DNA from: Solimonas flava DSM 18980
Lineage (GTDB): Bacteria > Pseudomonadota > Gammaproteobacteria > Nevskiales > Nevskiaceae
Length of the DNA: 64,000 nt
Reading direction: 5' to 3'
NCBI RefSeq assembly: GCF_000426685.1
Contig: NZ_AUFV01000008.1
Location: 8,530 to 72,529, forward strand
Positions 1,510-22,190 of the stretch are shown one piece after another (position 1 is the stretch's first letter; every line of letters starts with the position of its first letter). A program made the translations under genes and the position numbers. The notes under the pieces were generated by a model, which did no database searches, had not been told where the DNA came from, and saw only the letters and a program-made list of their open reading frames with translations.

Positions 1510-1575
1510 ACGCTAGCGCAGGCCGCCCGGCGACCACCAATCACCAGTGCGCGACCTGCCATAACCGGAACAAAT
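1510..1575 (-). promoter_or_regulatory. LysR-box promoter of the M20 peptidase gene (degenerate dyad)
   Basis: Plus-strand CATAAC-CGGAA-CAAATG at 1560-1576 keeps the left half and the T-N11-A geometry (T1562, A1574) of the box found at three other promoters here, but its right half is degenerate. CCAAT lies at 1537, exactly 24 bp from ATAAC, as in the others. On the minus strand this gives TTGGTG as a -35 and TAGCGT (1515-1510) as a -10, 19 bp apart, with an inferred start near 1503. The dyad centre is then about -65. Inference from pattern only. Confidence 0.6.
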
Positions 1576-1646
1576 GGCGGGCGCCGCGCCCCGTCACCGG
1601 GACGGCCGGCGCGGCGCCTCCCCTGCCGGCCCGGATGCCTGAGCCT

Positions 1647-2513
1647 TCAGCCGAGGTTGCAGATCTTGCGCTTGTAGGCGAGGAAGTAGCCGGCCAGCTC
1701 CTTCCAGACCGGCCCCGGCCGGCCGCCGCCGACGGCGCGGCCTTCGAGCGCGACGATCGGCAGCACGTCCTTCGTCGAGCTGGTGATCCACAGCTCGTCG
1801 GCCGCTTCCAGCTCGGCCTTGGTGACCTCGCGCTCCTCGATCGGCAGACCGTGCTGGCGGCAGATCTCGACCGTCAGGTTGCGTGTCACGCCGGCGAGAA
1901 TGCGGTTGCTGATCGGCGGCGTCGCAATGCGGCCGTTCTTGACGACGAACACATTGGTCGACGAGCCCTCGGTCACGCAGCCGTTGCGCGTCAGGATCAC
2001 CTCGGCGGCACCGACGACCTGGGCCATCTGCCGGAACAGGATGTTCGGCAGCAGCGCGACCGACTTGATGTCGCAGCGGTCCCAGCGGTTGTCCTCGCGC
2101 GTCAGCGCCTTGGCGCCGACCGCGCTGTCCGGGTTGTGCAGCGGCGACAGGCTCAGCGGCGAAGCACTCATGAACACCGTCGGCGGCACGGCCGGCACCG
2201 GGAACACGTGATCGCGCTTCGCCGCCGTGCCGCGCGTCACCTGCACGTAGATCGAGACATTGCCGCCGCCGTTGCGGCTGACGATCTCGCCGCACAGCGC
2301 GCGCCACTGCTCGCGCGGATGCGGATTGTCGATCTGCAGCTCGCGCATCGAGCGCTCAAGGCGCTGCAGATGCTCCTCGATACGGAACGGCACGCCGTTG
2401 AAGACCGGCACGACTTCATAGACGCCGTCGGCGAACAGGAAGCCGCGGTCGAGCGGCGAGATGCGCGCCTCCGCGGCATCGACGAACTGACCATCCAGAT
2501 AAACCGTATTCAT
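1647..2513 (-). CDS. dat: D-amino-acid transaminase, class IV PLP aminotransferase
   Basis: A 288-residue cytosolic PLP enzyme of fold type IV, the family of D-alanine transaminase, branched-chain aminotransferase and aminodeoxychorismate lyase. The likely catalytic lysine is in DIKSVALLPN (about residue 150). The VTRGTA segment and the VTEGSSTNVF phosphate-binding region match D-amino-acid transaminases better than IlvE or PabC. The product would interconvert D-Ala, D-Glu and related 2-oxo acids. The ATG at 2513 is chosen over the TTG at 2519. It lies 150 bp downstream of the HupE-like gene on the same strand and may be read from the CapA promoter. Beside two peptidase units and a CapA-like protein it suggests use of D-residue-containing peptides; that link is inferred. 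Confidence 0.85.
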   Translation of the reverse strand: MNTVYLDGQFVDAAEARISPLDRGFLFADGVYEVVPVFNGVPFRIEEHLQRLERSMRELQIDNPHPREQWRALCGEIVSRNGGGNVSIYVQVTRGTAAKRDHVFPVPAVPPTVFMSASPLSLSPLHNPDSAVGAKALTREDNRWDRCDIKSVALLPNILFRQMAQVVGAAEVILTRNGCVTEGSSTNVFVVKNGRIATPPISNRILAGVTRNLTVEICRQHGLPIEEREVTKAELEAADELWITSSTKDVLPIVALEGRAVGGGRPGPVWKELAGYFLAYKRKICNLG

Positions 2514-2663
2514 GCTCAAAACCTGATCCTGATGTTTCGGTGGGTCCGCTGCCCTGCCCGCGTCCGGCGCGCCGCCCGGGAGCGGCAGGCCGGCGCGGGC
2601 CGTGCAAAGGATGATGAGGGGAATCTCGCCGTCGTCGATGTCGGGTGCGCAGGACGTCGCGGC

Positions 2664-3827
2664 TCAGAAGGCACGCAGATAGAACCACACGGCGGCGCAG
2701 GCGCAAACCGCGGCCGAGCCGCCCCGCACCACGCCGATCCGGTAAAAACGCGTCGCGCGCAGCCGGTACGCGAGCGGGAAGAACACGGCGACGATCGCCA
2801 GCTGGCCGATTTCGACGCCGAGGTTGAAGGCGACCAGCGGACGCCAGATCTGCTGCGAACCGAGATCCAGCTCGGACAGCACGCTGGCGAAACCGAAGCC
2901 GTGCAGCAGGCCGAACGCGAACGCGAGCCAGGCCCCGCTGATACCGGCCGTGCGCGGCAGGAAGTTGTAGGCCGCGGCGATGAAGACCGACGCGGCGATC
3001 GCCGATTCGACGAAGTGGCTCGGCAGGTGCACCCAGCCGAGCACCGCGCAGCTCAGGGTGATCGAGTGCGCGAGCGTGAACGCGGTGACGATGGTCGTCA
3101 CGCGCAGGATCGCCGGCATCAGCGTCGGCACCGGCGCGCGGCCCGAGGCCGTGCGCGTGAACACGGCCGGGATCAGCAGGGCGATCAGGAACAGGATGTG
3201 GTCGTAGCCGATCCAGATGTGCCAGACACCGGATTTCAGGAACTGCCAGAAGCCACGGCCGCCGCTCGCCCGGTGCGAGAACGGCTGATAGGCGGTGCCG
3301 ACCGTGAACACCACTTCCTCGGGCTCCGCGTCGCCCCAGACGATCTTGGCCAGGCACTGGTGCTGCAGATCGTCCTCGAAGAACAGCGTATAGCCGATGT
3401 CGAGCTGTTCGATCGCGGCCGGCGCATCCGACTTGAAGCCGGCGATGACGAAGTCCTCGCCGTTCTGCACCGCGTCGACGATGCCGTCGTAATCGAGCAG
3501 CTGCTCGTGCCCGTTGGCGACGAGCTTGAGTCGCTGGCGGACATAGTCGCCGACCTCGTCGTGCCGCGCGGCGAGCGCGGCGCGCAGTTGCTCCGGCGGG
3601 GCGCCGACATCGAGCTTCAGCGCCAGCGCGACGTCGATCAGGCTCATCACCAGCCGCCCCTCGACATGTCCGCCGTCGACCTGCACGGTCAGGTACGACT
3701 GGCTGCCGGCGTGCGCGGACACCGCCGCCGGCAGCAGCGCCGCGAGCAGCAGCGCGAGGGCCGCGAGCCCGCAGCGCCAGAACCGGCCCAGCGCCTGCCA
3801 CACCGTCGTCGAAACCTGCGCGTTCAT
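2664..3827 (-). CDS. HupE/UreJ-like membrane protein
   Basis: A 387-residue inner-membrane protein with a signal-like N-terminus (hydrophobic run ending SAHA, about residues 15-40), a periplasmic domain of about 170 residues, then six or so membrane segments. Typical HupE/UreJ_2 motifs are present: GYDHILFLIALLIPAVF, AHSITLSCAVLG, FGLLHGFGFASVL. HupE and UreJ relatives are metal (nickel) permeases, and the conserved membrane His/Asp residues seen here fit a metal path, but this long subfamily with an N-terminal periplasmic domain has no assigned substrate. The ATG at 3827 (MNAQVS) is preferred to a longer frame starting at 3890. It lies 94 bp downstream of the CapA-like gene on the same strand, and dat follows. 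Confidence 0.8.
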   Translation of the reverse strand: MNAQVSTTVWQALGRFWRCGLAALALLLAALLPAAVSAHAGSQSYLTVQVDGGHVEGRLVMSLIDVALALKLDVGAPPEQLRAALAARHDEVGDYVRQRLKLVANGHEQLLDYDGIVDAVQNGEDFVIAGFKSDAPAAIEQLDIGYTLFFEDDLQHQCLAKIVWGDAEPEEVVFTVGTAYQPFSHRASGGRGFWQFLKSGVWHIWIGYDHILFLIALLIPAVFTRTASGRAPVPTLMPAILRVTTIVTAFTLAHSITLSCAVLGWVHLPSHFVESAIAASVFIAAAYNFLPRTAGISGAWLAFAFGLLHGFGFASVLSELDLGSQQIWRPLVAFNLGVEIGQLAIVAVFFPLAYRLRATRFYRIGVVRGGSAAVCACAAVWFYLRAF

Positions 3828-3921
3828 GATGCGTGGGTCCATCGTCTGCCCGGCTGGTCCGGACCGGCACCGGGCCGGACGCCGCGACACGCTGCGCGGC
3901 GCCGGCCGGCGCGGCCGTTGC

Positions 3922-5310: not shown

Positions 5311-5560
5311 AAGAACTCCAGGTTGAAGGCGCTGCGTATAAAAGCCATCGACGTCGAGAAGCGATCACGCGACGGCACATGAAGGAACTTGGGGCGGCGA
5401 TACCGGCGGCCGCGTTGAAGACAGTAGCCCGGTCCCGCGGTGGCCGGCTTCACCGCCTGGCCCGGGATTGCCGATCCGCGCAACAAGCAGTCTGCCGCAA
5501 TCGACGTCCGGACAAACCTCACCTCGGAATCAGCCACCGTCATCCGGCAATCCCGTGAAC

Positions 5561-5596
5561 CGCGAAACCCGGGCCAACGTCGGCCCGGGTTTCGCG
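5561..5596 (-). terminator. strong stem-loop after the TonB receptor gene
   Basis: A perfect 15-bp stem (CGCGAAACCCGGGCC pairing with its complement around AACGTC) starts 12 bp past the receptor stop codon. There is no real U-tract on the minus strand (only TTT inside the stem), so termination may be inefficient, or the hairpin may mainly protect the 3' end. Read-through into the CapA-like gene is possible. Confidence 0.65.
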
Positions 5597-5607
5597 ACCA
5601 CCTACCC

Positions 5608-8600
5608 TCAGAAGTTCTTGCTCAGGCGCACCGTCCAGGTACGGCCGACGGCGATGCTGTTGTAGACCGTCGGGTCGTAGCCGGCCGTGTCCGGGGTGAG
5701 CGGCGGCTTCTCGTTCGTCAGGTTCTTCACGCCGACGCGCACCGTCAGGCCGTCCAGCCATGCCGAATCGGAGATGAAGCTGCGCGACACGAAGCCGTTG
5801 TAGGTGATGTTGTCGTCAACCTTCCAGTAGTTCACACCACCGACCGTCTTGACGTAGCCCGGCACCTTGCCGTCCCAGGTCGAGTCCGGCGTGAAGACTG
5901 CCGACGTATCGGCATACTCGCCGATGTAGTACGCCGACAGACCGGCCGACCAGAGGTCGTGCGTCCAGGACAGCGCCGCGGAACCGCGCAGGCGGGTGTT
6001 ACCGTCGGCGCCGAGCAGCACGCTCGACACGCCGGTCAGACCGCCGGTCTGCGTGAACTTGTCGAGATAGGTCCAGTCCGTCGAGAACGTGACCTTGCCC
6101 CAGGTGAAGCGCGGCAGGTTGTAGGTGATGTTGAAGTCATAACCCGCGACTTCCTGCTGGTCGGCGTTGGTGAACGGCGTGTTGGTATTGACCAGCTGGC
6201 CGACCGGCGCGAGCCATTCCGACTGATCCTTGCCGGCGTTGTAGGCGGCGAAGGTATCGCGATCTTCCTGCGTCACTGCGTCGCGGGTGATGTTCGGGTT
6301 GCCCTGATAGCCGGCGGTCCCGCTGCCAAGATCGATGTCCTCCAGCGCCACGCCCGCAGCGAGCGCCGCCTGCGTCGCGGCACGCAGACGCGCGGCGTCG
6401 TCGTTGCGCAGCTGGTTGGCGTTCGGCGTCGCGATGACGTCGTCCATCTTGATCTTGAAGTAGTCCACCGAGAAGCGCAGACCGTCAACCTTCGGCACGT
6501 CGACGACGACACCCAGCGTCATGCCCTGCGAGGTCTCGGGGCCGAGTTCGCCGAGCGCGCCGCTGGTCTGCAGGCGCGGCGACGAGCCGCCACCGGCGAT
6601 ACCCGTGCGATACGGATCGGTATACGACGTGGTCGTGGTGCGCTGGTAGTTCATCATCGCCAGATTCGGCGCGCGGAAGCCCTCGTTGTACGAGGCGCGG
6701 ATCATCACCGGCTCGAGCGGACGGTAGTCCAGCGTGAACTTCGGGTTGGAGGTGCTGCCGAAGTCGCTGTAGTGCTCGTAACGCAGCGAGGCACCGACCG
6801 AGAGGCTGTACAGGCCGGGAATGTTGTTGCCCGGCGTGGCCAGCGGAATGACGGTTTCGGCGAAGCCGGCCATCACGCCGCGCGTGTCGTAGATGTTGGC
6901 GACCGGCGAGGCCTGCACGAAGTCGTTATTGGTCGGATCGAGGCCGAGCGCATTGCCCTCGTAGTTCAGGCCAACATACTGCGGGCGGTACAGCGCGTAG
7001 TCCTCGTGACGGTACTCGCCGCCGAGGGCGACCTGCACCGGGCCGGCCCACAGATCGAACAGCTCGCCGGTCACGCGCGCGTCGACCGTGGCGAGGATGT
7101 CGCGACCGGTCTGGCGGAACTTCTGCGAGAAGCTGTCGATGACCGCCGGATCGTTGACGTAGACGCTGGTCGGAACCGCGGCGGTGCCCGTGCCGGCGAA
7201 GTTGTAGCCGAACGGGTTGTAGAGGCCCGCGGCAACCGCCGCCTGCATGGCGCTCTCGCGAATCGCGTTCTGCGAGGTGTCATGCGTACCGTTGCGCGAG
7301 TAAGTCGCGGCCGACTCCCAGTTCCAGCGCGAGCTGAGATTGCCACGGCCGCCGAACACGAAGCGGTAGGCCAGGGTATCGGTCTTGACGCGCTCGTTGC
7401 CGTTGTCGACAAAGCGGTAGTTGTTGAGCGTCACCGCCGCCCCGAACGGATTGAACGGATTGTCGGCGGCAATGACGATCGCCCGGTCGGCGGTGCTGCT
7501 GTACGCAACCGGCGGGCGCTCCATCGTCGACTGCGCCGAGTACAGCAGCGCCTCGCCGAACAGGCTGAAGTTGTCGGTCACCTGGTAATCGAGCTGGTTG
7601 AACCAGTTGAAGCGCGTCGTCTCCGGCAGCGAGTAGCCGGCGTTCATGTCGTAGTACGCGTCCTTCGAATACTCGCCCTGCCGGTCCGGGGCGGTGGCGC
7701 TGACGACCGCCGTGCCGTTGCCGTTCGGCACCAGATAACGCTTGCCGGTGCCGGCGATGGTGAAGATCGGATACTGGCTCGACGCGTTGCGGTCGAAGAA
7801 CGGACCGTTGACGGCATTGAAGCCGTACGGCGCGCGCGACACCTTGTTCGAGTCGCCGCCGACGTCTTCGCTGAGCAGGGCATCGCGGTCGTAGGCGTCG
7901 AACGTGGAAATCCAGTGCAGCTGGCCGTCCAGGTAGTAGTCGCCGTGCGTCAGCGTCAGGCGACGCTCGTCACCGGAGCCGATTTCGGTGAAGCCGGCCT
8001 GGAACTCGGCCTGATTGCCCTTGAACTTGCTGTCGACGATGAAGTTGACGACGCCGGCGACGGCGTCCGAACCGTAGATCGACGAAGCACCGTCACGCAG
8101 CACGTCGACACGCGCCAGGCCGCGTGCCGGCATGGTGTTGGCATTGACCGTCATGTCGGTACCCGACGCGATGCCGTGCGCCGCCATGCGGCGGCCATTG
8201 AGCAGCAGCAGCGTCGCACCGGTGCCGAGGCCGCGCATCGCCACGCCGGCCACGTCGCCGCGCGCACCCGCGCCGCCCTGCGTCGATTCGTTGAGCGGCA
8301 CGCCGGTCACCGCCGGCAGCGCCGTCAGCAGATCGACCGGCGTACCGGCGTCACGCAAATCCATTTCCTCGGTGCTCATCACCGTCACCGGCAGAGCGGC
8401 ATCGTCCTCGCGGCGGATGCTCGTGCCGGTGACGATGATTTCCTCGACCGCCGCGGCAGCCGGAGCTGCCGGAGCCGCCGGACTGGCGACCTCGGCGGCG
8501 GCAGTTTCCATCGGCGCGTCCTGCGCCTGGGCCGAGCACGCGGCAACCGCCGCGATCGTGCCGATCAGAACCTTCACGGCGGAGACGTCCGATGCGCGAT

Positions 8601-8646
8601 GACGCTTTTCATCAACGGACGGCGAAAGATCTTTTGAACTCAACAC
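5608..8646 (-). CDS. TonB-dependent outer-membrane receptor
   Basis: A 1012-residue TonB-dependent receptor. It has an N-terminal export signal (about residues 20-42, ending SAQAQ), an Ala/Pro-rich linker, a TonB box-like EEIIVTGT, and a plug domain with RGLGTGATLLLLNGRR and VLRDGASSIYGSDAVAG. The remainder is a beta-barrel ending in the aromatic terminal sequence RLSKNF. The plug resembles the large Oar/Caulobacter-type receptors that take up oligosaccharides, peptides or other bulky nutrients rather than classic siderophore receptors; the substrate cannot be read from sequence. The start is GTG at 8646 with GGGAG upstream. The promoter with a LysR box lies at 8876-8940, giving a 5' leader of about 220 nt. 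The LysR gene upstream and the peptidase operon beyond it suggest that this receptor imports the substrate of the M81/M20 enzymes. Confidence 0.92.
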   Translation of the reverse strand: MLSSKDLSPSVDEKRHRASDVSAVKVLIGTIAAVAACSAQAQDAPMETAAAEVASPAAPAAPAAAAVEEIIVTGTSIRREDDAALPVTVMSTEEMDLRDAGTPVDLLTALPAVTGVPLNESTQGGAGARGDVAGVAMRGLGTGATLLLLNGRRMAAHGIASGTDMTVNANTMPARGLARVDVLRDGASSIYGSDAVAGVVNFIVDSKFKGNQAEFQAGFTEIGSGDERRLTLTHGDYYLDGQLHWISTFDAYDRDALLSEDVGGDSNKVSRAPYGFNAVNGPFFDRNASSQYPIFTIAGTGKRYLVPNGNGTAVVSATAPDRQGEYSKDAYYDMNAGYSLPETTRFNWFNQLDYQVTDNFSLFGEALLYSAQSTMERPPVAYSSTADRAIVIAADNPFNPFGAAVTLNNYRFVDNGNERVKTDTLAYRFVFGGRGNLSSRWNWESAATYSRNGTHDTSQNAIRESAMQAAVAAGLYNPFGYNFAGTGTAAVPTSVYVNDPAVIDSFSQKFRQTGRDILATVDARVTGELFDLWAGPVQVALGGEYRHEDYALYRPQYVGLNYEGNALGLDPTNNDFVQASPVANIYDTRGVMAGFAETVIPLATPGNNIPGLYSLSVGASLRYEHYSDFGSTSNPKFTLDYRPLEPVMIRASYNEGFRAPNLAMMNYQRTTTTSYTDPYRTGIAGGGSSPRLQTSGALGELGPETSQGMTLGVVVDVPKVDGLRFSVDYFKIKMDDVIATPNANQLRNDDAARLRAATQAALAAGVALEDIDLGSGTAGYQGNPNITRDAVTQEDRDTFAAYNAGKDQSEWLAPVGQLVNTNTPFTNADQQEVAGYDFNITYNLPRFTWGKVTFSTDWTYLDKFTQTGGLTGVSSVLLGADGNTRLRGSAALSWTHDLWSAGLSAYYIGEYADTSAVFTPDSTWDGKVPGYVKTVGGVNYWKVDDNITYNGFVSRSFISDSAWLDGLTVRVGVKNLTNEKPPLTPDTAGYDPTVYNSIAVGRTWTVRLSKNF

Positions 8647-8875: not shown

Positions 8876-8940
8876 ACGTTAGTGAGCCGGTTTGTCTGTC
8901 TCCAATGAAAAGATGCTTGCGGCACATAACCGCTTGTTAT
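8876..8940 (-). promoter_or_regulatory. LysR-box promoter of the TonB receptor gene
   Basis: ATAAC-CGCTT-GTTAT (8926-8940) is a perfect 5-bp dyad with T-N11-A geometry, flanked by GCGGC and GCCGC, which are also complementary. CCAATGAA starts at 8902, 24 bp from ATAAC. On the minus strand TTGGAG (8905-8900), an 18-bp spacer and TAACGT (8881-8876) form a plausible -35/-10, with a start near 8869. The dyad centre is then at about -64, the usual LysR activator position. Confidence 0.75.
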
Positions 8941-9202: not shown

Positions 9203-10138
9203 CTAGGCCGCCCTCGCCGTTTCCTCTGCCGGACGCGCACCGATCAGCTCTTCGGCCTCGGACTGCACGCACTTCAGGAAGGTCTGCTGCACGACGTTGA
9301 GCGGCCCGTCGACGCGATGTGCGACGTACAGCCGCAACGGAAAGTGCGGCTCGACGACGCGGATGTCGACCTCGTGTCCGCCGGCGACCGCCGTGAACGG
9401 ATCGACCAGCGCCATGCCCTCGCCGGCGCTGACCAGCTCCTTGGCGATCTGATAGGTCTGCACCCAGATGGAAATGCGCGGCGGCGGCGTCAGCCGCTCC
9501 AGATAGGTCTGCAGCTGGCGCCCGAAGTTGTCCATCATCGCGATTCCGACCAGCGGGCTGTCGGCGAGGCAGTCGATCGAGATCGGCTGCTTGCGCTCCT
9601 GCGCCGTCCACGTCCCGGCCGGGGCGATCAGCACCAGCGCGCCGGTGCACAAGGGCCGGCAGCGCACATCCGGATGGTTGAGTTCCTGCAGGGTGAGACC
9701 GATATCGGTTTCGCGCAGCACGATCGAGCGGATCATCTCGTTCGAGTGCTGCGTCGACAGCTCGACGGCGGCATTGCTGAAACGCTTACGCAGGCAGGTG
9801 ATCGCCCGCGGCACGATCGCGTTGGCGAGCGTTGGCGTGCTGACCACGCGCAGCAGTTGCTGATCCGAGCGCGCCAGATTGGCGGCGAGGCGCTGCAGGT
9901 CGCGCAGCTCGTCGGAGATGCGCTCGATCTTTTCCTTGAGCAGCACGCTCTCGGGCGTGAGCTGCAGGCGCCCCTTGGCGCGCACGAACAGCGGGAAGCC
10001 GAGGCGACGCTCGGCCTGCTGCAGCAGCTTGGTCGCCGCCGGCTGCGAAATGTTCAGGAGCGTTGCCGCACCGGTGAGCGTCCCGGCCTGCACGATGGCC
10101 TGGAACATCTCGATGTAGCGGAGTTGCATCGTTGCCAT
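9203..10138 (-). CDS. LysR-family transcriptional regulator
   Basis: A 311-residue LysR-type regulator. An N-terminal winged helix-turn-helix is visible (MQLRYIEMFQAIVQAGTL, then GAATLLNISQPAATKLLQ, about residues 4-41) together with the usual linker helix. The effector-binding domain runs from about residue 90 (LLRVVSTPTLANAIVP) to 295. The start is ATG at 10138 (or 10129); the frame upstream lacks family similarity. The gene lies between the receptor and the M81 operon, both of which carry an ATAAC-N5-GTTAT box at the position expected for a LysR activator, so it is the best candidate regulator of the four box-bearing promoters. That assignment rests on neighbourhood and motif geometry. A different dyad at 10250-10270 may mediate its own control. 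Confidence 0.92.
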   Translation of the reverse strand: MATMQLRYIEMFQAIVQAGTLTGAATLLNISQPAATKLLQQAERRLGFPLFVRAKGRLQLTPESVLLKEKIERISDELRDLQRLAANLARSDQQLLRVVSTPTLANAIVPRAITCLRKRFSNAAVELSTQHSNEMIRSIVLRETDIGLTLQELNHPDVRCRPLCTGALVLIAPAGTWTAQERKQPISIDCLADSPLVGIAMMDNFGRQLQTYLERLTPPPRISIWVQTYQIAKELVSAGEGMALVDPFTAVAGGHEVDIRVVEPHFPLRLYVAHRVDGPLNVVQQTFLKCVQSEAEELIGARPAEETARAA

Positions 10139-13783: not shown

Positions 13784-13803
13784 CGGGGGACCGCGCGCCG
13801 CGC

Positions 13804-15429
13804 TTACGGATAGCTGACGTTCTTGCCGTACGGATAGAACTTGTCGCGCGGCAGATGCTTGTAGTTCAGCGCTTCGAGATGCACGGTGCCGACGAACGGC
13901 GTCTCCGGCTCGCAGAGCAGGATGGTCTTGGCGTAGCCGTTGTCGTAGTAGCCGCGGCGGAAGTGCACGCGCGACTTGATCGCGAACGCCTTGAAGTCCG
14001 CCGGGTTGATGCCGATCGACAGCCAGGTCTCCGGCTCGGTGTTCTGGTGCAGATACGGGCTGATGATGACGACGTTGCCGTCGCCGAACTTGACGCTGAC
14101 CCACAGCTGCGAACCGCCGGCCTTGGTGCCGTATTCCGGACGCCCGGCCGCGCCGCTGACCGTGTAGACGGTGCCGGTGATGCGCACCGGCTTGCCCGCC
14201 GACGGATCGAGCTTGCCGCCGATCTCCATGTCGAACTTGTCGCCGACCTTGACGCCCTTCTTGCGCAGCGTCTCGATCACGTCGGCATCGGCGATGGTGC
14301 CGATCAGCGTATTGCTCATCTTCTGCGCGATGATCTGTTCGAGCAGCCAGGTCGCCGCACCGCTGCGGTCGCTGTGGTCGGCGAAGACGATCGGATACTT
14401 GCCGCTGGCGAGCGCTTCCTTGCCGAGCTTCACCGCCTCCTTCATGTAATAGACCTTGGTGCCGTTCACCAGCTGCTCGCGCAGACGCCAGGCGGTGTTG
14501 GCCATGTCGTCGGCGATGTGGTTCGCCAGTTCCGGCTTGCCGTTGGTCATCACCTGGAAGCACATGCCGGCATCGACCACATCGGCGAACGCGAAGCCGT
14601 AGTAGAAGTTGACGTAGACGTCCGGCTCGCGCGCCTCCCAGACCAGCGCCCGCTGCACCAGATCCATCCACGGCGACGCGCCGGTCCACTGCAGCACCGA
14701 GGCGGTCAGGATCGGCGGCTTGCGCGTCGCCGTCGTCGGCTTGTAGTCGCCGCGGCAGGCGCGGATCAGCGTGCGCGCCGCGCGCTCGCCCTGCAGGAAG
14801 CCGTCGTAATGCGGGTAATACTTGATCGTGAACGCAAGGTCGGCGTGGCGCAGGAACTCGGCGTCCTCGTTGCCGTGCGGATCGAAGGTGCCGACGATGT
14901 AGGCCTTCGGGCCGACCACTTCGCGCACGCGCGCGGCGATGATCGATTCCGGCTTGGCGACGTCGCGCACGCCCATCGCGCCATGCAGCGACAGATAGGC
15001 GCCGTCGAACGGGCCCTGCGCCTTGAGGTCGGCGATCATCTTGTCGAGCAGCGTGTCGAACGCTTCCTTGGTGATCCAGCCGGAGCCCGAGCCCTTCTTC
15101 GAGCCGAGCGGCGATTCGACGCCGACCAGTTCGACGTTGGCGTGCTCGCGCGCCACCTTCACGAAACCGCCGATGTAGCTGCGCGGCGAGGAGTTCAGCA
15201 GCGCTTCGCCGCGCGCCGGCGAACCTTCGTAGATGAAGTCGTCGAGCGTGGTGTCGTACGGTAGGAAGGTCACCGTCTCGTGCGCGAAGTGCATGACGGC
15301 GATGCGCAGCGGCTTGGTCGGGCTGACGCGCCCGGCACGCTCGGGTGCAGCAGTCGCGGTGCCGAACGGCACCGCCGCCAGGCCGGCCATGGCCGAAGCC
15401 GTCAACACCGAGCGTCGCGTGATTTTCAT
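13804..15429 (-). CDS. Tat-exported M81 (MlrC-like) metallopeptidase, copy 3 (first in operon)
   Basis: A 541-residue paralogue starting MKITRRSVLTASAMAGLAAV, a twin-arginine signal. It has FAHETVTFLP, FDPHGNED, IKYYPHYDGFLQG and FADHSDRSGAATWLLEQ. It is closest to copy 1 over the central 200 residues, including near-identical DNA, so duplication or gene conversion is recent or ongoing. It heads the operon; the promoter with the LysR box is at 15552-15616, giving a leader of about 116 nt. M81 relatives act on peptides with unusual residues (MlrC); a role in degrading an imported non-standard peptide is an inference from that and the adjacent TonB receptor. Confidence 0.88.
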   Translation of the reverse strand: MKITRRSVLTASAMAGLAAVPFGTATAAPERAGRVSPTKPLRIAVMHFAHETVTFLPYDTTLDDFIYEGSPARGEALLNSSPRSYIGGFVKVAREHANVELVGVESPLGSKKGSGSGWITKEAFDTLLDKMIADLKAQGPFDGAYLSLHGAMGVRDVAKPESIIAARVREVVGPKAYIVGTFDPHGNEDAEFLRHADLAFTIKYYPHYDGFLQGERAARTLIRACRGDYKPTTATRKPPILTASVLQWTGASPWMDLVQRALVWEAREPDVYVNFYYGFAFADVVDAGMCFQVMTNGKPELANHIADDMANTAWRLREQLVNGTKVYYMKEAVKLGKEALASGKYPIVFADHSDRSGAATWLLEQIIAQKMSNTLIGTIADADVIETLRKKGVKVGDKFDMEIGGKLDPSAGKPVRITGTVYTVSGAAGRPEYGTKAGGSQLWVSVKFGDGNVVIISPYLHQNTEPETWLSIGINPADFKAFAIKSRVHFRRGYYDNGYAKTILLCEPETPFVGTVHLEALNYKHLPRDKFYPYGKNVSYP

Positions 15430-15551: not shown

Positions 15552-15616
15552 ACCATATCGGGCGCCAGAGCGGCGCACCAATGAATTGCGAAACCCTGCG
15601 CATAACCCGCGGTTAT
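15552..15616 (-). promoter_or_regulatory. LysR-box promoter of the M81 operon
   Basis: ATAAC-CCGCG-GTTAT (15602-15616) extends to a 10-bp perfect dyad, GCGCATAACC-CGC-GGTTATGCGC (15598-15620), with T-N11-A geometry. CCAATGAA starts at 15578, 24 bp from ATAAC. On the minus strand TTGGTG (15581-15576), an 18-bp spacer and TATGGT (15557-15552) give a start near 15545, placing the dyad centre at -64. Confidence 0.8.
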
Positions 15617-15630
15617 GCGCCAGGCGCGAC

Positions 15631-15689
15631 GCGACCGCGACCGCGACCGCGGCGGTGCGGGTGCGGGTGCGGGTGCGGGTGCGGGTGCG
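15631..15689. repeat. hexanucleotide repeats (GCGACC)3 and (GGTGCG)6
   Basis: Three GCGACC units (15631-15648) are followed after 5 bp by six perfect GGTGCG units (15654-15689). They lie between the LysR box of the M81 operon and the 3' end of the MoxR/VWA operon, in a non-coding stretch. Copy number could vary by replication slippage. Confidence 0.8.
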
Positions 15690-15745
15690 CGGCACCGTAC
15701 CGCAGCGCGCGCGATCGACTCCGCACCGCGCCGGCGCCACCGCGC

Positions 15746-17212
15746 TCACGGCCGCGCGGGCGCGGCAGGCGGCGGCGCGGCTTCGCCGTAGAGCGGCATC
15801 ACGGCGCCGGCGCGGACCCAGCCGACCTGCGAACCGGCCGCGACCTGGCGCCAGCCGAGGAAAGCGCGCAGGCCGAGCACCACGCTGCCGCCGGCGGCCG
15901 GCGTGGTCTCGTCCTGCGGCACCAGATCGGTCGGCGTCGGACTCAGGTTGACGCGCTGCAGCAGCAGGCCGGCGTTGCCCAGGCGCAGCTCGCCGTAGGC
16001 CTGCCAGGCGCCGATCGAGGCCGCCAGCGCCAGCAGCGCCACGCCGGCTGCGCCGATGCCGGCATAGCGGTAGCGGCGCGGCCAGCCGCGGTAGCGGCCG
16101 ACGATCGGCACCGCCGCGGCGGCCGCGAACAGCAGGCTCGCCAGCAGCGCCGCGCGCTGCCAGCCGCCGGGCGCCAGCGCGGCCGGCAGGCGCTCGAGCG
16201 CATTGCCGAGGAACAGGCGCTGCAGACGTGAATCGGCGCCGGGTGCGAGCGCGAGCGCCGCACGCAACGTGTCGCGCGCCTGAGGCGTCGACGAGTGCAG
16301 CAGGAACGCGGCCGTCGCATGCGCCAGCGCGCGATCGCCGTCCTGCTGCTGCAGGTAGAAGTGCGCGAGATTTTCGTGCGCCGCCCAGTCGCGCGGCTGC
16401 GCCTGCAGCGCGACGAGCGCGGCATCGCGCATCGCCAGCGACTCGGCGGCATCGGCCGCGACAGCCGATGCCGTCGCGGGTGCCGCGGACCCGGCGCGCG
16501 CCGCCTCCGGCGCCCCGAGCCACAGCGCCAGCGTCAGCACCGCCAGCGGCGGCAGCCAATCGACGCGGCGATCAGGCCCGCGCCGCGTGCGCGGCGGCAC
16601 CAGCAGCGCCGCACCGAGCGCCTGGGCGCGCTCGGCCCAGTTGTCGGCGAGACCGGCATCGGCGGCGTACAGGCCGCGCTCGGTCGCGCGCCACAGGCCC
16701 TGCCACTGCCCGGCGAGCGTGTCGTCGCCGCCGAGCACCCGGATCGCCGCCGCCAGCTCGTCGGCGCTCGGCGCGGCGCTGCGCAGGTCCCAGGCCCGCG
16801 CCGCGGCCAGCAGCCAGCGGTGCAGCTGGCGTGGCGTCGGCCGCGTGCCGGGCGCACGCTGCAGCTCGCGCAGCAGGCGGTGCAGCTCGCGCACGCCGCG
16901 ACGGCGGCCGCGCACCGGATCGGTTTCGAACGCCTGCTTCCAGGCCAGCACCAGCCACAGTGCGGCCGGGACCAGCAGCGCACCGAGCGCGAACCAGGCC
17001 GGAGCGAAGGGCCACGGCGCGCTGCCGACGCGGCCGAGCGCCAGCGGCGCGGCGCTGACGGCAACCGCGGCGGCGACCGGCGCATCGGCGCCGGCGGCGG
17101 TGTCCGGCATGTCGCCCGCAACCGTGGCGCGCGCGCCGGACGGCAGCGCGGCGGCGGCCAGCGTCGCCGCCAGCACCATTGCCGTGAACCAGCCGCGGAG
17201 GGTCGCCGTCAT
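15746..17212 (-). CDS. TPR-containing membrane protein of the MoxR/VWA operon (BatE/BatD-like)
   Basis: A 488-residue protein starting MTATLRGWFTAMVLAATL, with a signal peptide (ending SGARA), a membrane segment near residues 70-90 (FALGALLVPAALWLVLAW), another near 225-240, and TPR-like helices (ALQAQPRDWAAHENLAHFYL, about 275-345). Two more membrane segments follow near 360-420, and a short SH3-like tail ends the protein (GSQVGWVRAGAVMPLY). This layout resembles the BatD/BatE-type TPR proteins that end Bat operons, but similarity is weak and I would not assign a letter. Its start overlaps the stop of the upstream VWA gene by one base, indicating translational coupling. A Gly/Ala/Arg-rich composition is typical of this region. 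Confidence 0.65.
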   Translation of the reverse strand: MTATLRGWFTAMVLAATLAAAALPSGARATVAGDMPDTAAGADAPVAAAVAVSAAPLALGRVGSAPWPFAPAWFALGALLVPAALWLVLAWKQAFETDPVRGRRRGVRELHRLLRELQRAPGTRPTPRQLHRWLLAAARAWDLRSAAPSADELAAAIRVLGGDDTLAGQWQGLWRATERGLYAADAGLADNWAERAQALGAALLVPPRTRRGPDRRVDWLPPLAVLTLALWLGAPEAARAGSAAPATASAVAADAAESLAMRDAALVALQAQPRDWAAHENLAHFYLQQQDGDRALAHATAAFLLHSSTPQARDTLRAALALAPGADSRLQRLFLGNALERLPAALAPGGWQRAALLASLLFAAAAAVPIVGRYRGWPRRYRYAGIGAAGVALLALAASIGAWQAYGELRLGNAGLLLQRVNLSPTPTDLVPQDETTPAAGGSVVLGLRAFLGWRQVAAGSQVGWVRAGAVMPLYGEAAPPPAAPARP

Positions 17213-19002
17213 CACCAGTCTTCCTGTTCCGTGGTCTGCTGCGCCTGCGTGCTCTCGCTCATCAGCTGATGCAGGCGCCCCGGCGAATCGCGCTCGGCGA
17301 CGTCCTTGAGGCGCTGCTTCGAGAACTCGAGGATCGGGTCCGGGCCGGCGCGGCTCTCGCCGGACTTCGCCGCGCGCAGCGCCGCCATGCGCACGTTCTT
17401 CGGCGGCGGCGTCTGGTTCTTCTTGGCGACCGGCGAATCGGCGTCGGGCGACAGATCGCCGAGCGAGGCGTCGGTCTTGGTCGCCGAGCCCTGGCCGAAC
17501 GAATCGTTCGCCGACTGCTGCGTGCTCTGGCCGGCGACGGTCGGCGGCTTGTCCTCCTCGTCGAGCGGATTGGCCTTGTTCTGCGCGGCCTTGTTGGCGC
17601 CGTCCTCGCCGGCCGGCGGCTTGAGCATCTCGGTCAGGCGCGCGCGGTAGAACGCCCAGTTGGCAACCGATTTGTCGAGCCGCTCGCCCTCGTAGGTCGC
17701 GTCGATCGCATCGCGGATCACGCCCTCGGCCGGAACCAGCTCGGTGCGCTGCTCGTCGAGGCCGTATTTGATCGTCTCCTCGACCATCAGGCGGATATCG
17801 TAGGCGTCGTAACCGTAGCGGCCGAGGTGATCGACGATCGCGCGCAGACGCTCGCTCGGGTTGCTGTCGAATACCTCGCGCACCTCGAACTGCGCGTCGG
17901 CGTCGAAATGCGCGCGCGCCTGTTCGCCGCCGGCGAGCGTCGCCAGCGCGGCCAGTGCCAGCGGCACGCCGCTGCGCACCGTCGCGCCGGTCTTGCGTCG
18001 ATGGATCTCGCGCGGCTGCGGCCGCTGGTGGAATTCGGTGAACAGGCCGAGCAGGCCGAGCAGTACCGCCGGCAGCAGGAACCACTGGAAGCGCTCGCGG
18101 CTGGCGGTGCCGAGTTCATCGCCGAAACGACCCTTGCGGCCGGTCGCGACGGTTTTCTGCAGTAGCGGTCCGACGTCCTCGAGCGTGCTGGCATTGAGGT
18201 ACTCGCCGTGCGTGCGCCGCGCCAGTGTCAGCAGCGTCGACGGCATCAGTTTCGAGTGCACCGTGCCGCCACGCGAATCCTGCAGGTAGGCGCCGCTGGC
18301 GTCGCGGATGAAGCCGCCGGCCTCGGTGCCGAGTCCGAGCGCGATCACGTGGATCTGCCGCTTCTCCAGCGTGTCGAGCAGGTCCTGCCAGCCCTCGGTC
18401 GTGCTCTCGCCGTCGCTGAGCACGATCAGGTAGCGGTCGACGTCGGGCTCCTCGCCGAAACCTTCGAGCGCCGCCTTGAGCATGCCGGTGTAGTCGGAAC
18501 CGCCCTGCGGCATGTAGTCCGGCCCGAGGTCGGGCAGGAACTCGCGGATAATCTGGTAATCGGAACTCAGCGGCACCTGCACGAACGCGGTGCCGGCGAA
18601 CACGATCAGCCCGACGCGCTCGCCCTTGAGCGCATCGAGCAGCGATTCGGTGATCGCCGCGGCGTGATCGAGCCGCGTCGGCTCGACGTCCTCGGCGAGC
18701 ATGCTGCGCGACAGATCGAGCGCGATCATCACCTCGCGCGCGCTGGTGAACGCGCTTTGATCCTGCTCGCCCCAGCGCGGCTGCGCCAGCGCCACGATCG
18801 CCAGCGCGATCGCCAGCAGCATCAGCACGCGCGGCCGCGGGCGCCCCGGCACCCGCGCGCGCAGGCGTTCGCCGACGACCGCGACCCGCCGCATCGCCGG
18901 CCAGCGCGCCGTCGCGATGCGCCGCGCATGGCGGCGCATCGCGACGGCGCCGAGCAGCGGCAGCAGCAATGCCAGCAACAGCAGTGGTGAACCCCAGCTC
19001 AT
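17212..19002 (-). CDS. VWA-domain membrane protein with long C-terminal extension (BatB-like)
   Basis: A 596-residue protein. N-terminal membrane segments (about 4-20 and 58-75) precede a von Willebrand A domain with an intact MIDAS motif (DLSRSMLAED, about residues 95-104, plus SDGES near 200). A further membrane segment follows near 310-325 (FLLPAVLLGLLGLF). After a second signal-like hydrophobic stretch (LALAALATLAGGEQARAH) comes a helical region of about 90 residues and a low-complexity, Gln/Asn/Ser/Pro-rich tail. The C-terminal half looks like a separate periplasmic protein fused to a BatB. Start and stop overlap the neighbouring genes (ATGA at 18999-19002), so the operon is tightly coupled. 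Likely role: envelope-anchored adaptor or chaperone partner of the MoxR ATPase. Confidence 0.8.
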   Translation of the reverse strand: MSWGSPLLLLALLLPLLGAVAMRRHARRIATARWPAMRRVAVVGERLRARVPGRPRPRVLMLLAIALAIVALAQPRWGEQDQSAFTSAREVMIALDLSRSMLAEDVEPTRLDHAAAITESLLDALKGERVGLIVFAGTAFVQVPLSSDYQIIREFLPDLGPDYMPQGGSDYTGMLKAALEGFGEEPDVDRYLIVLSDGESTTEGWQDLLDTLEKRQIHVIALGLGTEAGGFIRDASGAYLQDSRGGTVHSKLMPSTLLTLARRTHGEYLNASTLEDVGPLLQKTVATGRKGRFGDELGTASRERFQWFLLPAVLLGLLGLFTEFHQRPQPREIHRRKTGATVRSGVPLALAALATLAGGEQARAHFDADAQFEVREVFDSNPSERLRAIVDHLGRYGYDAYDIRLMVEETIKYGLDEQRTELVPAEGVIRDAIDATYEGERLDKSVANWAFYRARLTEMLKPPAGEDGANKAAQNKANPLDEEDKPPTVAGQSTQQSANDSFGQGSATKTDASLGDLSPDADSPVAKKNQTPPPKNVRMAALRAAKSGESRAGPDPILEFSKQRLKDVAERDSPGRLHQLMSESTQAQQTTEQEDW

Positions 19003-20018
19003 GCGTAGGCATCCTCGCCGCTGCGACGCACGGCGCCGAACAGCGCCAGGCCGAGCAAGGCGACGCCCGGCAGCGCGAAGTACGCGAACAGTTCATGGCT
19101 GATCAGCGGCGGCGGCGCATCGAAGTCGATCTTGTTCTCGCGGTCGATCTGCGCGAAGGCCTGACCGACCGCGCGCTCGTCGGTGGCGCGGAAGAACAGG
19201 CCGCCGGTGCTCTCGGCAATGTCGCGCAGCAGCAGCGTGTCGACTTCCGACGCGCGAATCTCGGTGCCGACGCGCTTGCCGGCGTAGTCGAACACCGGCA
19301 TCGGAATATTGCCTTCGGCACCGGCGCCGATCGTGTAGACGGCGACGCCGTCCTCGGCCGCGAGCTGCGCGGCCTGGCGCGGATCGAGCGAACCCTTGTT
19401 GCTGGCGCCGTCGGTGAGCAGCACGATGAACGCGCCCTCGCGCTTGCCGGCCTCCCCCTTCTGTCCCTGGCGCAGGCGCGACAGCGAGACGCCGATCGCG
19501 TCGCCGATCGCGGTGCCATCCTCGATCAGGCCGATCGACAGGCGCGCCGTCTGCTTGCGCAGCCACTCGTGGTCGAAGGTCAGCGGCGCGAAGGTATAGG
19601 CGCGGCCGCCGAAGGTGACGATGCCGATGCGGTCGTCCGGACGGCGGTTGATGAAGGCGGAGATGATCGGCTTGATCGCCTGCAGGCGGTTGGTGGTCGT
19701 GCCGCCGCGCTGGAAGTCCTCGGCGTACATGCTGGTCGACAGGTCGATGGCGATGATGAAGTCGTAGCCGCTGCGCTTCGGGTCCTTCTCCGGCTCCAGG
19801 AACTGCGGCCGCGCCAGGCCGACGATCAGCAGCGCCAGCCCGGCATACGCGCAGGCCACCGCCCACGGCGGTGAATTGGCGCTCGCCGACATCTGCCACT
19901 GCTGCGCCTCGGGCACCACCAGCACCGTCACGCCGCGGCGCCGGCGCAGCCACATCAGCAGCGGCAGCGCGGCCAGCAGCCACAGCCAGAGAGAGTCGTG
20001 AAACGTCCAGCCCGGCAT
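18999..20018 (-). CDS. VWA-domain membrane protein (BatA-like)
   Basis: A 339-residue protein with the BatA layout: two N-terminal membrane segments (about 10-25 and 50-68), a VWA domain with MIDAS motif DLSTSMYAED (about residues 92-101) and LLTDGASNKG, and a C-terminal membrane segment (YFALPGVALLGLALFGAV, about 312-330). In Bat operons the VWA proteins face the periplasm and are thought to work with a cytosolic MoxR AAA ATPase in assembly or stress tolerance of envelope proteins. It follows the DUF58 gene by 11 bp; the small DUF4381 gene often found between them is missing here. Confidence 0.85.
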   Translation of the reverse strand: MPGWTFHDSLWLWLLAALPLLMWLRRRRGVTVLVVPEAQQWQMSASANSPPWAVACAYAGLALLIVGLARPQFLEPEKDPKRSGYDFIIAIDLSTSMYAEDFQRGGTTTNRLQAIKPIISAFINRRPDDRIGIVTFGGRAYTFAPLTFDHEWLRKQTARLSIGLIEDGTAIGDAIGVSLSRLRQGQKGEAGKREGAFIVLLTDGASNKGSLDPRQAAQLAAEDGVAVYTIGAGAEGNIPMPVFDYAGKRVGTEIRASEVDTLLLRDIAESTGGLFFRATDERAVGQAFAQIDRENKIDFDAPPPLISHELFAYFALPGVALLGLALFGAVRRSGEDAYA

Positions 20019-20029
20019 ACGTCAGTCCC

Positions 20030-20944
20030 TCAGCCGCGGGCGCCGGGCTGCTTGTGCCGGCGGAAGTAGGCGATCAGCGACTGCAGCAGGTCCTCGTCGT
20101 TGCGTACCGCGAGGCGGCCGCCGGGCGTCGGGAACAGGCGGCTGAAATAGGCGTCGCGCCAGACGCGCCACTGCGCGTGCGCATGGCGCTCGGCGCGCGA
20201 CGCAGGATCGAGATTGACGACGCGGCCGGCGACCGGGTCGTAGACGGCCAGGCGCCCGCACTCCGGCAGCGCATCGTCCCAGGCGTCGTCGGCGCGCACG
20301 CCGATCGTCTGGCAGCGCTGCTGCAGCACGCGCCAGCCCTCCGGCGTTTCGGTCGGCATGAAAGCGCCGAACCAGAGGATCACGCTGCCGTTCGAAGCCG
20401 CGCGGCGGATCATCCGCCACGGCAGCGCGCAGTCCGGCGCCACATCGAGCGGCGGCGGCGGCGTGTCGAGCAGGCGCGAGGCCATACGCAGCGTGCTCTT
20501 GCGGCCGGCCATCGGCCGCTGATACCAGGACGCGACCGGCGAGCTGTAGAACAGGCCGACGCGGTCGCGGTTCACCGAAGCCAGCAGCATCAGCAGCGCG
20601 GCGACTTCGAGCAGCGATTCGCGGCGCGTGCGCGCACCGGAGCCGAACTGCAGCGCCGGCGAATCCTCGAACACGAAGATCAGCGACAGCTCGCGCTCTT
20701 CGACGAACTTCTTGCGGTACGGCTCGCCGAGCCGCGCCGTCACGTTCCAGTCGATGTCGCGCAGGTCGTCGCCCCACTGGTACTTGACGACCTGATCGAA
20801 CTCCATGCCGCGGCCGCGGAATGCCGAGCGGTAGTCGCCGGACAGCGTGGTGTTGACCGCACGCTCGATCTGCCACTCCATGCGCCGCAGCGCCGCTTTC
20901 GGCGCGGTCGGCAGGACGGCGGTCGCGGCGGGAATCGGCGCCAT
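20030..20944 (-). CDS. DUF58-domain protein
   Basis: A 304-residue cytosolic protein with the DUF58 signature region GRGMEFDQVVKYQWGDDLRDIDWNVTAR in parts: the RGMEFD (about residue 45) and DIDWN (about residue 64) motifs characteristic of the family are clear. The C-terminal part is a VWA-like fold (LIFVFEDSPALQFGSG). DUF58 proteins almost always accompany MoxR ATPases and VWA proteins. No biochemical activity is established. It sits 47 bp after the MoxR gene, in the same operon. Confidence 0.88.
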   Translation of the reverse strand: MAPIPAATAVLPTAPKAALRRMEWQIERAVNTTLSGDYRSAFRGRGMEFDQVVKYQWGDDLRDIDWNVTARLGEPYRKKFVEERELSLIFVFEDSPALQFGSGARTRRESLLEVAALLMLLASVNRDRVGLFYSSPVASWYQRPMAGRKSTLRMASRLLDTPPPPLDVAPDCALPWRMIRRAASNGSVILWFGAFMPTETPEGWRVLQQRCQTIGVRADDAWDDALPECGRLAVYDPVAGRVVNLDPASRAERHAHAQWRVWRDAYFSRLFPTPGGRLAVRNDEDLLQSLIAYFRRHKQPGARG

Positions 20945-20991
20945 TGAGTCGGACCTGTACGAGCGAAGGGCGAGCGGGGAGCGGACGGCGT

Positions 20992-22008
20992 TCAGCGCGC
21001 GCCGGCGTCCGGTTCCGGCACCGCGGTCTGGCGCAGCACCTCGGCCAGCACCTGATCGGTCGTCATGCCGATCGCTTCGGCCTCGTAGGTCAGGCCGACG
21101 CGGTGACGCATGACGTCGAGAAAGATGTCCTGCACGAAGGCCGGCGCCACGAAATCGCTGCCGCGCAGCCAGGCCAGCGCCTTGCTCGCCTGCAGCAGGC
21201 CGAGCGAGGCACGCGGCGAAGCGCCGAAGGCCAGCGTGCGCGGCTCGCGCGACGAATCTTCCTTGCGCGCGGCGATCGCGCGCGTGGCGCGGACCAGGGC
21301 GACGATGTAGGCCTGGATCGCGTCGGCGACATGCACCCGATCGACTTGCTTGCGCAGTTCCAGCAGCTGCGCGCCGCTGGCGACGGCCTGCACTTCGGGC
21401 TGCGAGGTGACCTGGCCCCAGCGCCGCATCATCTCGATTTCTTCGTCGACCGCCGGGTAGTCGAGCATCAGCTTGAACAGGAAGCGGTCGAGCTGCGCTT
21501 CCGGCAGCGGATAGGTGCCTTCCTGCTCGACCGGGTTCTGCGTCGCCATCACCAGAAACGGCTTGGGCAGCGCGTGCGTGGCGCCGCCGATCGTCACCTG
21601 CCGTTCCTGCATCGCTTCGAGCAGCGCGCTCTGCACCTTGGCCGGCGAGCGGTTGATTTCGTCGGCGAGGACCAGGTTCGCGAAGATCGGGCCCAGGTGC
21701 GGCGAGAACTTGCCGTCACCCGGCGAGTACACCATCGTGCCGACCACGTCGCTCGGCAACAGGTCCGGCGTGAACTGGATGCGCTCGAAGCGCACGCCGA
21801 GCGCTTGCGCGAGCGATTTGACGAGCAGCGTCTTGGCCAGGCCCGGCATGCCTTCGAGCAGCACGTGGCCGCCGGTCAGCAGCGCGATCTGCAGGCGTTC
21901 GATGATCGGGCGCTGGCCGAGGACCGCCTTGCCGATTTCGTCGGCGAGCGTCGCCGACCACTGCGCACCGGACAGCGGGGCCGGCGCCATGTCTGCGGCC
22001 GCGCTCAT
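20992..22008 (-). CDS. MoxR-family AAA+ ATPase
   Basis: A 338-residue AAA+ ATPase of the MoxR family. The Walker A is EGMPGLAKTLLVKSLA (a degenerate P-loop typical of MoxR, about residues 53-68), Walker B is LVLADEINRS, and sensor-type ATQNPVEQEGTYPLPEAQLDRF follows in segments. MoxR ATPases act as chaperones that mature or activate partner complexes together with VWA proteins. First gene of a five-gene operon (MoxR, DUF58, VWA, VWA, TPR). Its promoter carries the same LysR-type box, with identical spacing, as the M81 and TonB receptor promoters, which ties this envelope module to the peptide locus. ATG at 22008 or 21990. Confidence 0.9.
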   Translation of the reverse strand: MSAAADMAPAPLSGAQWSATLADEIGKAVLGQRPIIERLQIALLTGGHVLLEGMPGLAKTLLVKSLAQALGVRFERIQFTPDLLPSDVVGTMVYSPGDGKFSPHLGPIFANLVLADEINRSPAKVQSALLEAMQERQVTIGGATHALPKPFLVMATQNPVEQEGTYPLPEAQLDRFLFKLMLDYPAVDEEIEMMRRWGQVTSQPEVQAVASGAQLLELRKQVDRVHVADAIQAYIVALVRATRAIAARKEDSSREPRTLAFGASPRASLGLLQASKALAWLRGSDFVAPAFVQDIFLDVMRHRVGLTYEAEAIGMTTDQVLAEVLRQTAVPEPDAGAR

Positions 22009-22125
22009 GGCGCGACGCCCGGCCGGACGGTTCCGAGCGCGGTCTGCACCGCGCGCGCGCCGCGCGGCGCAGCGGAAAAGTATGTCGTCGTCAACATCGT
22101 GCGCTTCCTGTCGAGTGGCTCGTTG

Positions 22126-22190
22126 AGATTAGGAAGCGCCTGCTTCCCCAGCCAATGAATTTGTCAGTGGAGCGCATAACTCGCGGTTAT
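22126..22190 (-). promoter_or_regulatory. LysR-box promoter of the MoxR/VWA operon
   Basis: ATAAC-TCGCG-GTTAT (22176-22190), T-N11-A, has CCAATGAA starting at 22152, again 24 bp from ATAAC. On the minus strand TTGGCT (22155-22150), an 18-bp spacer and TAATCT (22131-22126) give a start near 22119 and a dyad centre at -64. The leader to the MoxR ATG is about 111 nt. Confidence 0.75.

What the first reader, a model, noticed from the sequence alone, without database searches (positions are those of the whole stretch)
1510..22190. A four-promoter LysR-type regulon with invariant spacing
ATAAC-N5-GTTAT (T-N11-A) occurs at 8926-8940, 15602-15616 and 22176-22190, and in degenerate form (ATAAC-N5-CAAAT) at 1561-1575. 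In all four cases CCAAT starts exactly 24 bp from ATAAC, and a -35/-10 (TTGGnn, 18-19 bp, TAnnnT) follows in the minus direction, placing the dyad centre 64-65 bp upstream of the inferred start. That is the classic LysR activator layout. The LysR gene at 9203-10138 lies between two of these promoters. The units served are the M20 peptidase, the TonB receptor, the M81 operon and the MoxR/VWA operon.
Basis: partly seen in the sequence, partly recalled or inferred. Interest (0 to 1): 0.9.

Follow-up and report, generated by a model that had tools for sequence, protein, structure and literature searches.

The report
D-glutamate regulator with many matching promoters
One regulator protein probably switches on a whole cluster of genes for taking up and digesting D-glutamate-containing material, through promoters built to the same fixed plan in this bacterium and its relatives.

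Summary
ATAAC-N5-GTTAT occurs at 6 places in the 4.46-Mb genome, 5 within 30 kb, all five with CCAAT at exactly 24 bp. Two lie left of the window, before gltP and dgcN-dgcA. The motif CCAATSAAWW-N14-ATAAC-N5-GTTAT is in 49 stretches of 257 Gb, from 35 genomes; 29 of 35 hold one close homologue of this LysR, against only the own genome of 369 in the class. The -10 box, not part of the motif, is conserved. In Pseudomonas the LysR and a related site sit beside a D-amino-acid dehydrogenase and RidA, the content I recall for dguR-dguABC. Conclusion: a DguR-like D-glutamate regulon, expanded in Nevskiaceae to many promoters that serve TonB receptors, M81 peptidases, a MoxR/VWA operon, DgcN-DgcA and a glutamate symporter. 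The site at 1561 is weak. Binding, effector and substrate are not shown. New variant of a known kind.

The parts
8926..8940 (-). LysR recognition palindrome (ATAAC-N5-GTTAT) of the TonB receptor promoter
   Evidence: score 56.9
8902..8912 (-). conserved CTTTTCATTGG box (proposed activation contact overlapping the TTGG -35)
8876..8881 (-). -10 TAACGT, 18 bp from TTGGAG
   Evidence: position not in the search pattern
15602..15616 (-). LysR recognition palindrome of the M81 operon promoter
   Evidence: score 46.9
15552..15557 (-). -10 TATGGT of the M81 promoter
   Evidence: sequence
22176..22190 (-). LysR recognition palindrome of the MoxR/VWA operon promoter
   Evidence: score 48.8
22126..22131 (-). 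-10 TAATCT of the MoxR promoter
   Evidence: sequence
1561..1575 (-). degenerate recognition site of the M20 promoter (one half-site kept)
   Evidence: 17.4, fourth in window; no M20 gene found in the island stretches fetched from G014, G025 and H. effusa
151..1449 (-). M20 metallopeptidase
   Evidence: PF01546
1647..2519 (-). class IV aminotransferase, D-amino-acid transaminase-like (296.1 bits of cut-off 320)
2664..3890 (-). HupE/UreJ-type membrane protein
   Evidence: PF13795
3922..5310 (-). PGA_cap protein, distantly like peptide epimerase MslH (319.7 bits of cut-off 700)
5608..8646 (-). TonB-dependent receptor
9203..10138 (-). LysR-type regulator, DguR-like, the proposed activator
10398..12008 (-). 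M81 (MlrC-like) metallopeptidase with MKITRR leader
12053..13681 (-). M81 metallopeptidase, second copy (start moved in from the ORF end at 14689)
13804..15429 (-). M81 metallopeptidase, third copy
15746..17212 (-). unnamed protein next to the VWA genes (Bat-like by position only), conserved in G014 and G025
17212..19002 (-). VWA protein
18999..20018 (-). VWA protein with a BatA-type N-terminus (below the Pfam cut-off)
20030..20944 (-). DUF58 protein
20992..22008 (-). MoxR-type AAA+ ATPase

Best explanation
The LysR protein at 9203-10138 is a DguR-like activator that senses D-glutamate or a close derivative. It binds the ATAAC-N5-GTTAT palindrome centred about 64 bp upstream of the start, contacts the CTTTTCATTGG box over the -35, and recruits RNA polymerase. 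It turns on at least five promoters here: gltP, dgcN-dgcA (perhaps with the RND-HlyD genes behind them), the TonB-PGA_cap-HupE-transaminase operon, the M81 operon (which runs towards lysR, so positive feedback is possible) and the MoxR/VWA operon; probably also M20. Together these would import D-Glu-containing peptides, cut them in the envelope, take up glutamate, and convert D-Glu to L-Glu by DgcN-DgcA or to 2-oxoglutarate by the transaminase. Shown: sites, spacing, -10, co-conservation with the LysR, gene families. Inferred: binding, activation, effector, substrate, operon extents.
For: Sites are scarce and clustered. Relatives have clusters before orthologous genes; eight site-bearing genomes give 48 matches with up to 2 mismatches (29 exact, 13 with one, 6 with two), 0 with the reversed pattern. 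Of 49 stretches in the 257-Gb scan, 43 lie in genomes with the LysR; 29 of 35 genomes have it, against own only of 369 class genomes. Pseudomonas: 22 of 59 genomes have the LysR; 19 of those 22 loci have both the dehydrogenase neighbour and a site with at most 3 mismatches; a pattern made from these sites hits 17 of 59 genomes, all 17 among the 22, none of the other 37. The -10 is conserved. Targets fit: DgcN, DgcA and GltP above curated cut-offs; D-amino-acid dehydrogenases, RidA and gamma-glutamyltransferase elsewhere. Seven fetched loci with DgcN of the below-cut-off kind have neither LysR nor site. DguR is a LysR-type regulator of the dguA promoter in D-Glu catabolism (PMC10926688, passage seen).
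Against: No binding, expression or effector data. No D-amino-acid dehydrogenase is among the island genes I annotated (I did not search the genome for one). In the tree one Pseudomonas DguR-like group falls with the window LysR and the other with three paralogues not beside the dehydrogenase and with long branches (87/83). The DguR paper is not held, so its operator and D-Glu binding are recalled, and that the Pseudomonas loci are dguR rests on gene content. The 29 genomes are related, so the Fisher p of 1e-38 (own genome left out) overstates independence; the class control scored at most six candidates per genome, the other search up to 65. Six of 35 site genomes lack the LysR. At two mismatches 44 of 369 class genomes have a match, so two-mismatch sites alone mean little. 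One H. effusa site (C1:917740) has no evident target gene close by.
Confidence: 0.82

Rival explanations
1. The LysR and sites are as described, but the effector is not D-glutamate: for example N-acetyl-D-Glu, D-Asp, D-Gln or a D-Glu peptide.
For: Targets elsewhere also include D-amino-acid dehydrogenases, an amidohydrolase, a DppA-like binding protein and TonB receptors.
Against: DgcN, DgcA and the glutamate symporter and a gamma-glutamyltransferase point to glutamate; DguR is tied to D-Glu.
Confidence: 0.25
2. The sites belong to another co-inherited regulator and the LysR is a bystander.
For: No binding data exist; in the window the LysR is not divergent from a target.
Against: In the 17 Pseudomonas genomes the site lies 7-11 bp from the start of the LysR match, and LysR-negative genomes have none; T-N11-A near -64 is the usual LysR layout (established knowledge).
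Confidence: 0.06
3. The LysR represses rather than activates these promoters.
For: LysR proteins can repress, mostly their own gene (established knowledge); nothing in the calls speaks for it.
Against: The palindrome is centred about 64 bp upstream and does not cover the -10 or start; TTGGnn is a poor -35, as expected of activated promoters.
Confidence: 0.07
4. The fourth site (1561) is chance.
For: Distal half is ATTTG; score 17.4 against 46.9-56.9; no M20 gene in the island stretches fetched from G014 and G025 and H. effusa.
Against: Clear fourth rank in the window, exact 24-bp spacing, right orientation, TAGCGT -10.
Confidence: 0.35

Closest known systems
DguR-dguABC of Pseudomonas aeruginosa (He et al. 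2014, recalled; cited in PMC10926688, passage seen)
   Same: LysR family; the 19 dehydrogenase-adjacent Pseudomonas homologues are 40-47% identical to the window LysR; related palindrome plus ATTG box at the same spacing; D-Glu catabolism.
   Different: One divergent promoter seen per Pseudomonas genome; here at least five, with peptidases, TonB, MoxR/VWA and DgcN-DgcA. PAO1 itself was not examined.
DgcN-DgcA D-glutamate pathway (PMC10845958 and PMC12363236, passages seen)
   Same: Both enzymes above NCBIfam equivalog cut-offs.
   Different: The published regulator DgcR (recalled) could not be compared; the peptidase, TonB and MoxR setting is not in the passages I saw.
MlrC microcystinase, M81 family (PMC4810221, PMC9982164, passages seen)
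   Same: Same Pfam domains; MlrC cuts the Adda-Glu bond.
   Different: 102.3 bits against a cut-off of 999; three copies here, five in G025. Other mlr genes were not searched for.
MoxR-VWA (Bat-type) operons
   Same: MoxR, DUF58 and two VWA genes in order.
   Different: Preceded by this LysR site in nine genomes (own, G014, G025, G061, G084, G085, G087, G090, G112; by reading the translation).

Membership tests
LysR-type transcriptional regulator | N-terminal HTH_1 plus LysR_substrate domain | tested here: met
   PF00126 1.9e-16 and PF03466 5.8e-29
LysR activator promoter layout | T-N11-A dyad near -65 | tested here: met
   the start is inferred from the -10, not mapped
LysR activator promoter layout | second, inducer-dependent contact near -35 | tested here: inconclusive
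   a conserved CTTTTCATTGG box is there, but its use as a contact is not shown
DguR | homologue with an operator shared with the Pseudomonas dehydrogenase-RidA loci | tested here: met
   that those loci are dguR rests on recalled gene content
DguR | gene divergent from dguA-dguB-dguC | tested here: not met
   dehydrogenase, RidA and TAXI binding protein found in Pseudomonas L049; in the window lysR lies between M81 and TonB genes. Hence filed as DguR-like, not as DguR
DguR | responds to D-Glu | not testable with these tools
   needs binding or reporter assays
DgcN-DgcA pathway | both enzymes above curated cut-offs | tested here: met
   DgcN 507.6 (cut-off 480), DgcA 445.7 (cut-off 400)
MlrC microcystinase | NCBIfam NF041767 cut-off | tested here: not met
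   102.3 bits of 999 for the copy tested (13804-15429)
M81 peptidase family | DUF1485 and MlrC_C domains | tested here: met
   three copies

The most novel reading that the evidence does not exclude
A single-promoter D-glutamate sensor has been built out, chiefly in Nevskiaceae, into a master switch for a dedicated D-peptide feeding system. It controls outer-membrane receptors, several exported M81 peptidases specialised for bonds next to D-Glu, an AAA+/VWA (MoxR) machine with a HupE-type transporter that readies those metalloenzymes, and an RND pump, all on one rigid promoter template.
Probability: 0.4. Interest if true: 0.72.

Novelty: new variant of a known kind. Interest (0 to 1): 0.58.

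Why it matters
It gives a probable inducer and pathway to genes that are hard to place (M81 peptidases, PGA_cap, a MoxR/VWA operon, TonB receptors of unknown ligand) and a motif specific enough to find further members in other genomes. It shows a regulon going from one promoter to as many as ten candidate sites (H. effusa, up to 2 mismatches) while keeping its 24-bp ruler, and it makes the client of a MoxR/VWA machine testable.

Tried and rejected
Considered and dropped: chance. The C20:3176 palindrome as a member (no CCAAT at 24 bp; no matrix score of 12 or more in L008). The CCAAT-N19-ATAAC matches at C4:218348 and C11:25528 (no score of 12 or more in L103 and L102). The other exact matches outside the island (two on C1, one on C20) got no matrix score except where L101 and L008 cover them. 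The six LysR-less genomes (L044, L048, L065, L070, L071, L083) are taken as chance hits; that is a judgement, not a test.

Rows dropped: before building the matrix I left out five of 64 distinct sequences (L044, L048, L070, L071, L083) and reduced 59 to 44 by similarity; L065, later found LysR-less, stayed in. The matrix contains the window genome's own five strong sites, so their scores are not independent.

A candidate further promoter, C1:439908-439946 (2 mismatches, score 36.4, -10 in place), precedes a TonB receptor and a NicT-like nickel transporter. Of 12 genomes searched for NicT one had it at E <= 1e-30, and the 4,029 bases held there have no match under 7 mismatches, though they may not reach the promoter. 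Left open.

Led nowhere: the DguR and DgcN papers (not held). The listings of paper searches showed nothing that describes this expanded regulon or its motif; I opened passages of only some. Solved structures gave distant LysR proteins, best 2e-16.
Full report
Observation. All coordinates and the 24-bp CCAAT spacing are right. The palindrome ATAAC-N5-GTTAT has 6 places in the 4.46-Mb genome (0.19 expected from base composition); five lie on contig C6 between 1555 and 30719, and the window is C6:8530-72529. CCAAT-N19-ATAAC has 11 exact matches genome-wide, six of them in that 30 kb. The extended motif CCAATSAAWW-N14-ATAAC-N5-GTTAT, drawn from these and the G014/G025 sites, has six matches in the genome with up to 3 mismatches: five in the island and one on C1.

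Two perfect sites lie left of the window, facing outwards: one before a glutamate/aspartate symporter (GltP, 741.8 bits, cut-off 638), one before DgcN (507.6, cut-off 480) and DgcA (445.7, cut-off 400), followed by an RND pump and a fusion protein. This turns an unnamed LysR regulon into a probable D-glutamate one.

Relatives. Among 61 genomes, 8 have a match to CCAAT-N19-ATAAC-N5-GTTAT with at most 1 mismatch, own included. G014 and G025, of another genus of the family, have six clustered sites each (G014 one more elsewhere); five others have single one-mismatch hits that look like chance; the reversed pattern has one hit in each of two genomes. The clusters carry homologues of MoxR, DUF58, VWA, M81, DgcN, DgcA, LysR, TonB, PGA_cap, HupE and the transaminase, and lysR follows dgcA directly. 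The ten same-genus genomes have no site; one of the ten has a DgcN, below the cut-off. I did not search the LysR in those ten. DgcN above the cut-off occurs in 4 of 58 family genomes, and all four have sites. Eight further genomes have DgcN below the cut-off; I fetched loci of seven of them (L106-L112), and none has a LysR hit at 1e-10 or a site scoring 12 or more. The partial G062 copy and second copies in G036 and G078 were not fetched.

All-genome scan. The motif lies in 49 stretches of 257 Gb, in Pseudomonas, Rhodanobacteraceae, Lysobacteraceae, Nevskiaceae and a few others; records of the window's own genome may be left out there. In 36 of 49 a homologue of some island protein (1e-10) lies in the fetched stretch, a few of them only weak TonB or RND matches. 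The 49 come from 35 genomes; 29 of 35 hold exactly one LysR homologue at E <= 1e-40, 39-71% identical. The other six genomes have one stretch each, are scattered, and are taken as chance. In 369 genomes of the class only the own genome has such a LysR; an exact motif is in own (5) and one other, G399, the same place as L044. With 2 mismatches 44 of 369 match, so such hits are not informative alone. Fisher p is 1e-38 with own left out, and the 29 genomes are related.

Promoter anatomy. Forty-four non-redundant sites give, on the coding strand, C-ATAAC-N5-GTTAT-G, then CTTTTCATTGG, then a -10 in two registers: T 27/44 at 59, A 28/44 and T 16/44 at 60, T 31/44 at 64, counted from the first A. The -10 was not in the search pattern, so its conservation is independent evidence of promoters. 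The palindrome centre lies about 64 bp before the inferred start.

Pseudomonas. In the eight Pseudomonas loci the site precedes a D-amino-acid-dehydrogenase-like frame (by reading) and lies beside the LysR. For L049 the families are D-amino-acid dehydrogenase, RidA and a TAXI-type binding protein, the content I recall for dguR-dguABC. Of 59 Pseudomonas genomes 22 have the LysR at 1e-70; 19 of those 22 loci have both the dehydrogenase and a site with at most 3 mismatches at the 24-bp spacing. A pattern made from these sites hits 17 of 59 genomes, once each, all 17 among the 22, with 0 control hits. The other three LysR loci (L161, L163, L164) are not beside the dehydrogenase; L161 has the palindrome without the CCAAT box. 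A tree puts the window LysR with the G014, G025, Hydrocarboniphaga and RYN copies (100/100), next to the Lysobacter and Pseudoxanthomonas copies (96/90); deeper joins are unsure.

Other targets. By family search: gamma-glutamyltransferase in Luteimonas, D-amino-acid dehydrogenase in Hydrocarboniphaga, RidA in RYN_607, an amidohydrolase in H. effusa, a DppA-like protein in Aquitalea. By reading translations only: RND pump genes behind sites in H. effusa and RYN_607. Eight genomes chosen because they have sites give 48 matches with up to 2 mismatches, 2 to 10 each, 0 in the control. One of them, H. effusa C1:917740, has no evident target close by.

Mechanism. LysR activation from -64 plus -35 is inferred from the layout. 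The M81 proteins begin MKITRR with a hydrophobic stretch, which looks like a Tat leader; that would mean folding and metal loading before export, which could explain MoxR/VWA and HupE in the regulon. This is inference. MlrC, a distant M81 relative, needs zinc (PMC9982164, passages) and cuts between Adda and Glu (PMC4810221, passages). The likeliest substrates are D-Glu-containing peptides such as peptidoglycan fragments; microcystin-like peptides are possible.

Limits. No binding, expression or effector data. That the window is from Nevskiaceae is inferred: G061 is of the same family, and its contig length equals that of H. effusa NZ_AKGD01000003.1.

Noticed in passing
G000:C1:439908-439946 (L101:3409-3447), genes at L101:63-3237: Candidate further site before a TonB receptor and a NicT-like nickel transporter; a separate perfect palindrome ATTACGAATTCGTAAT lies between it and the gene, perhaps another regulator's site.
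   Followed up: partly
window 1-70: Tandem repeat of a unit like CCGCACGAGGCACGCG at the window's left edge, next to a run of N in L007.
   Followed up: no
window 15620-15680: Short GCGACC and GCGGGT tandem repeats just behind the M81-promoter palindrome.
   Followed up: no
window 3922-5310: PGA_cap protein resembles the lasso-peptide Trp epimerase MslH (319.7 bits, cut-off 700): possibly a peptide epimerase or hydrolase acting on D-residues.
   Followed up: no
L106-L112: A second kind of DgcN-DgcA locus in the family (DgcN 47-52%, DgcA 40-46% identical) beside a distant M81 homologue (26-29%), without the LysR or its sites.
   Followed up: partly
L007:3955-8308, G014:C1:104830-109248, G025:C64:10162-14445, L137, L142: RND-type pump genes recur under or next to the same sites in five genomes; the cargo is unknown.
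   Followed up: partly
L007:1708-1746: At the dgcN promoter the CCAATCA box is part of a perfect inverted repeat CCAATCA-N5-TGATTGG, perhaps a full activation site.
   Followed up: no
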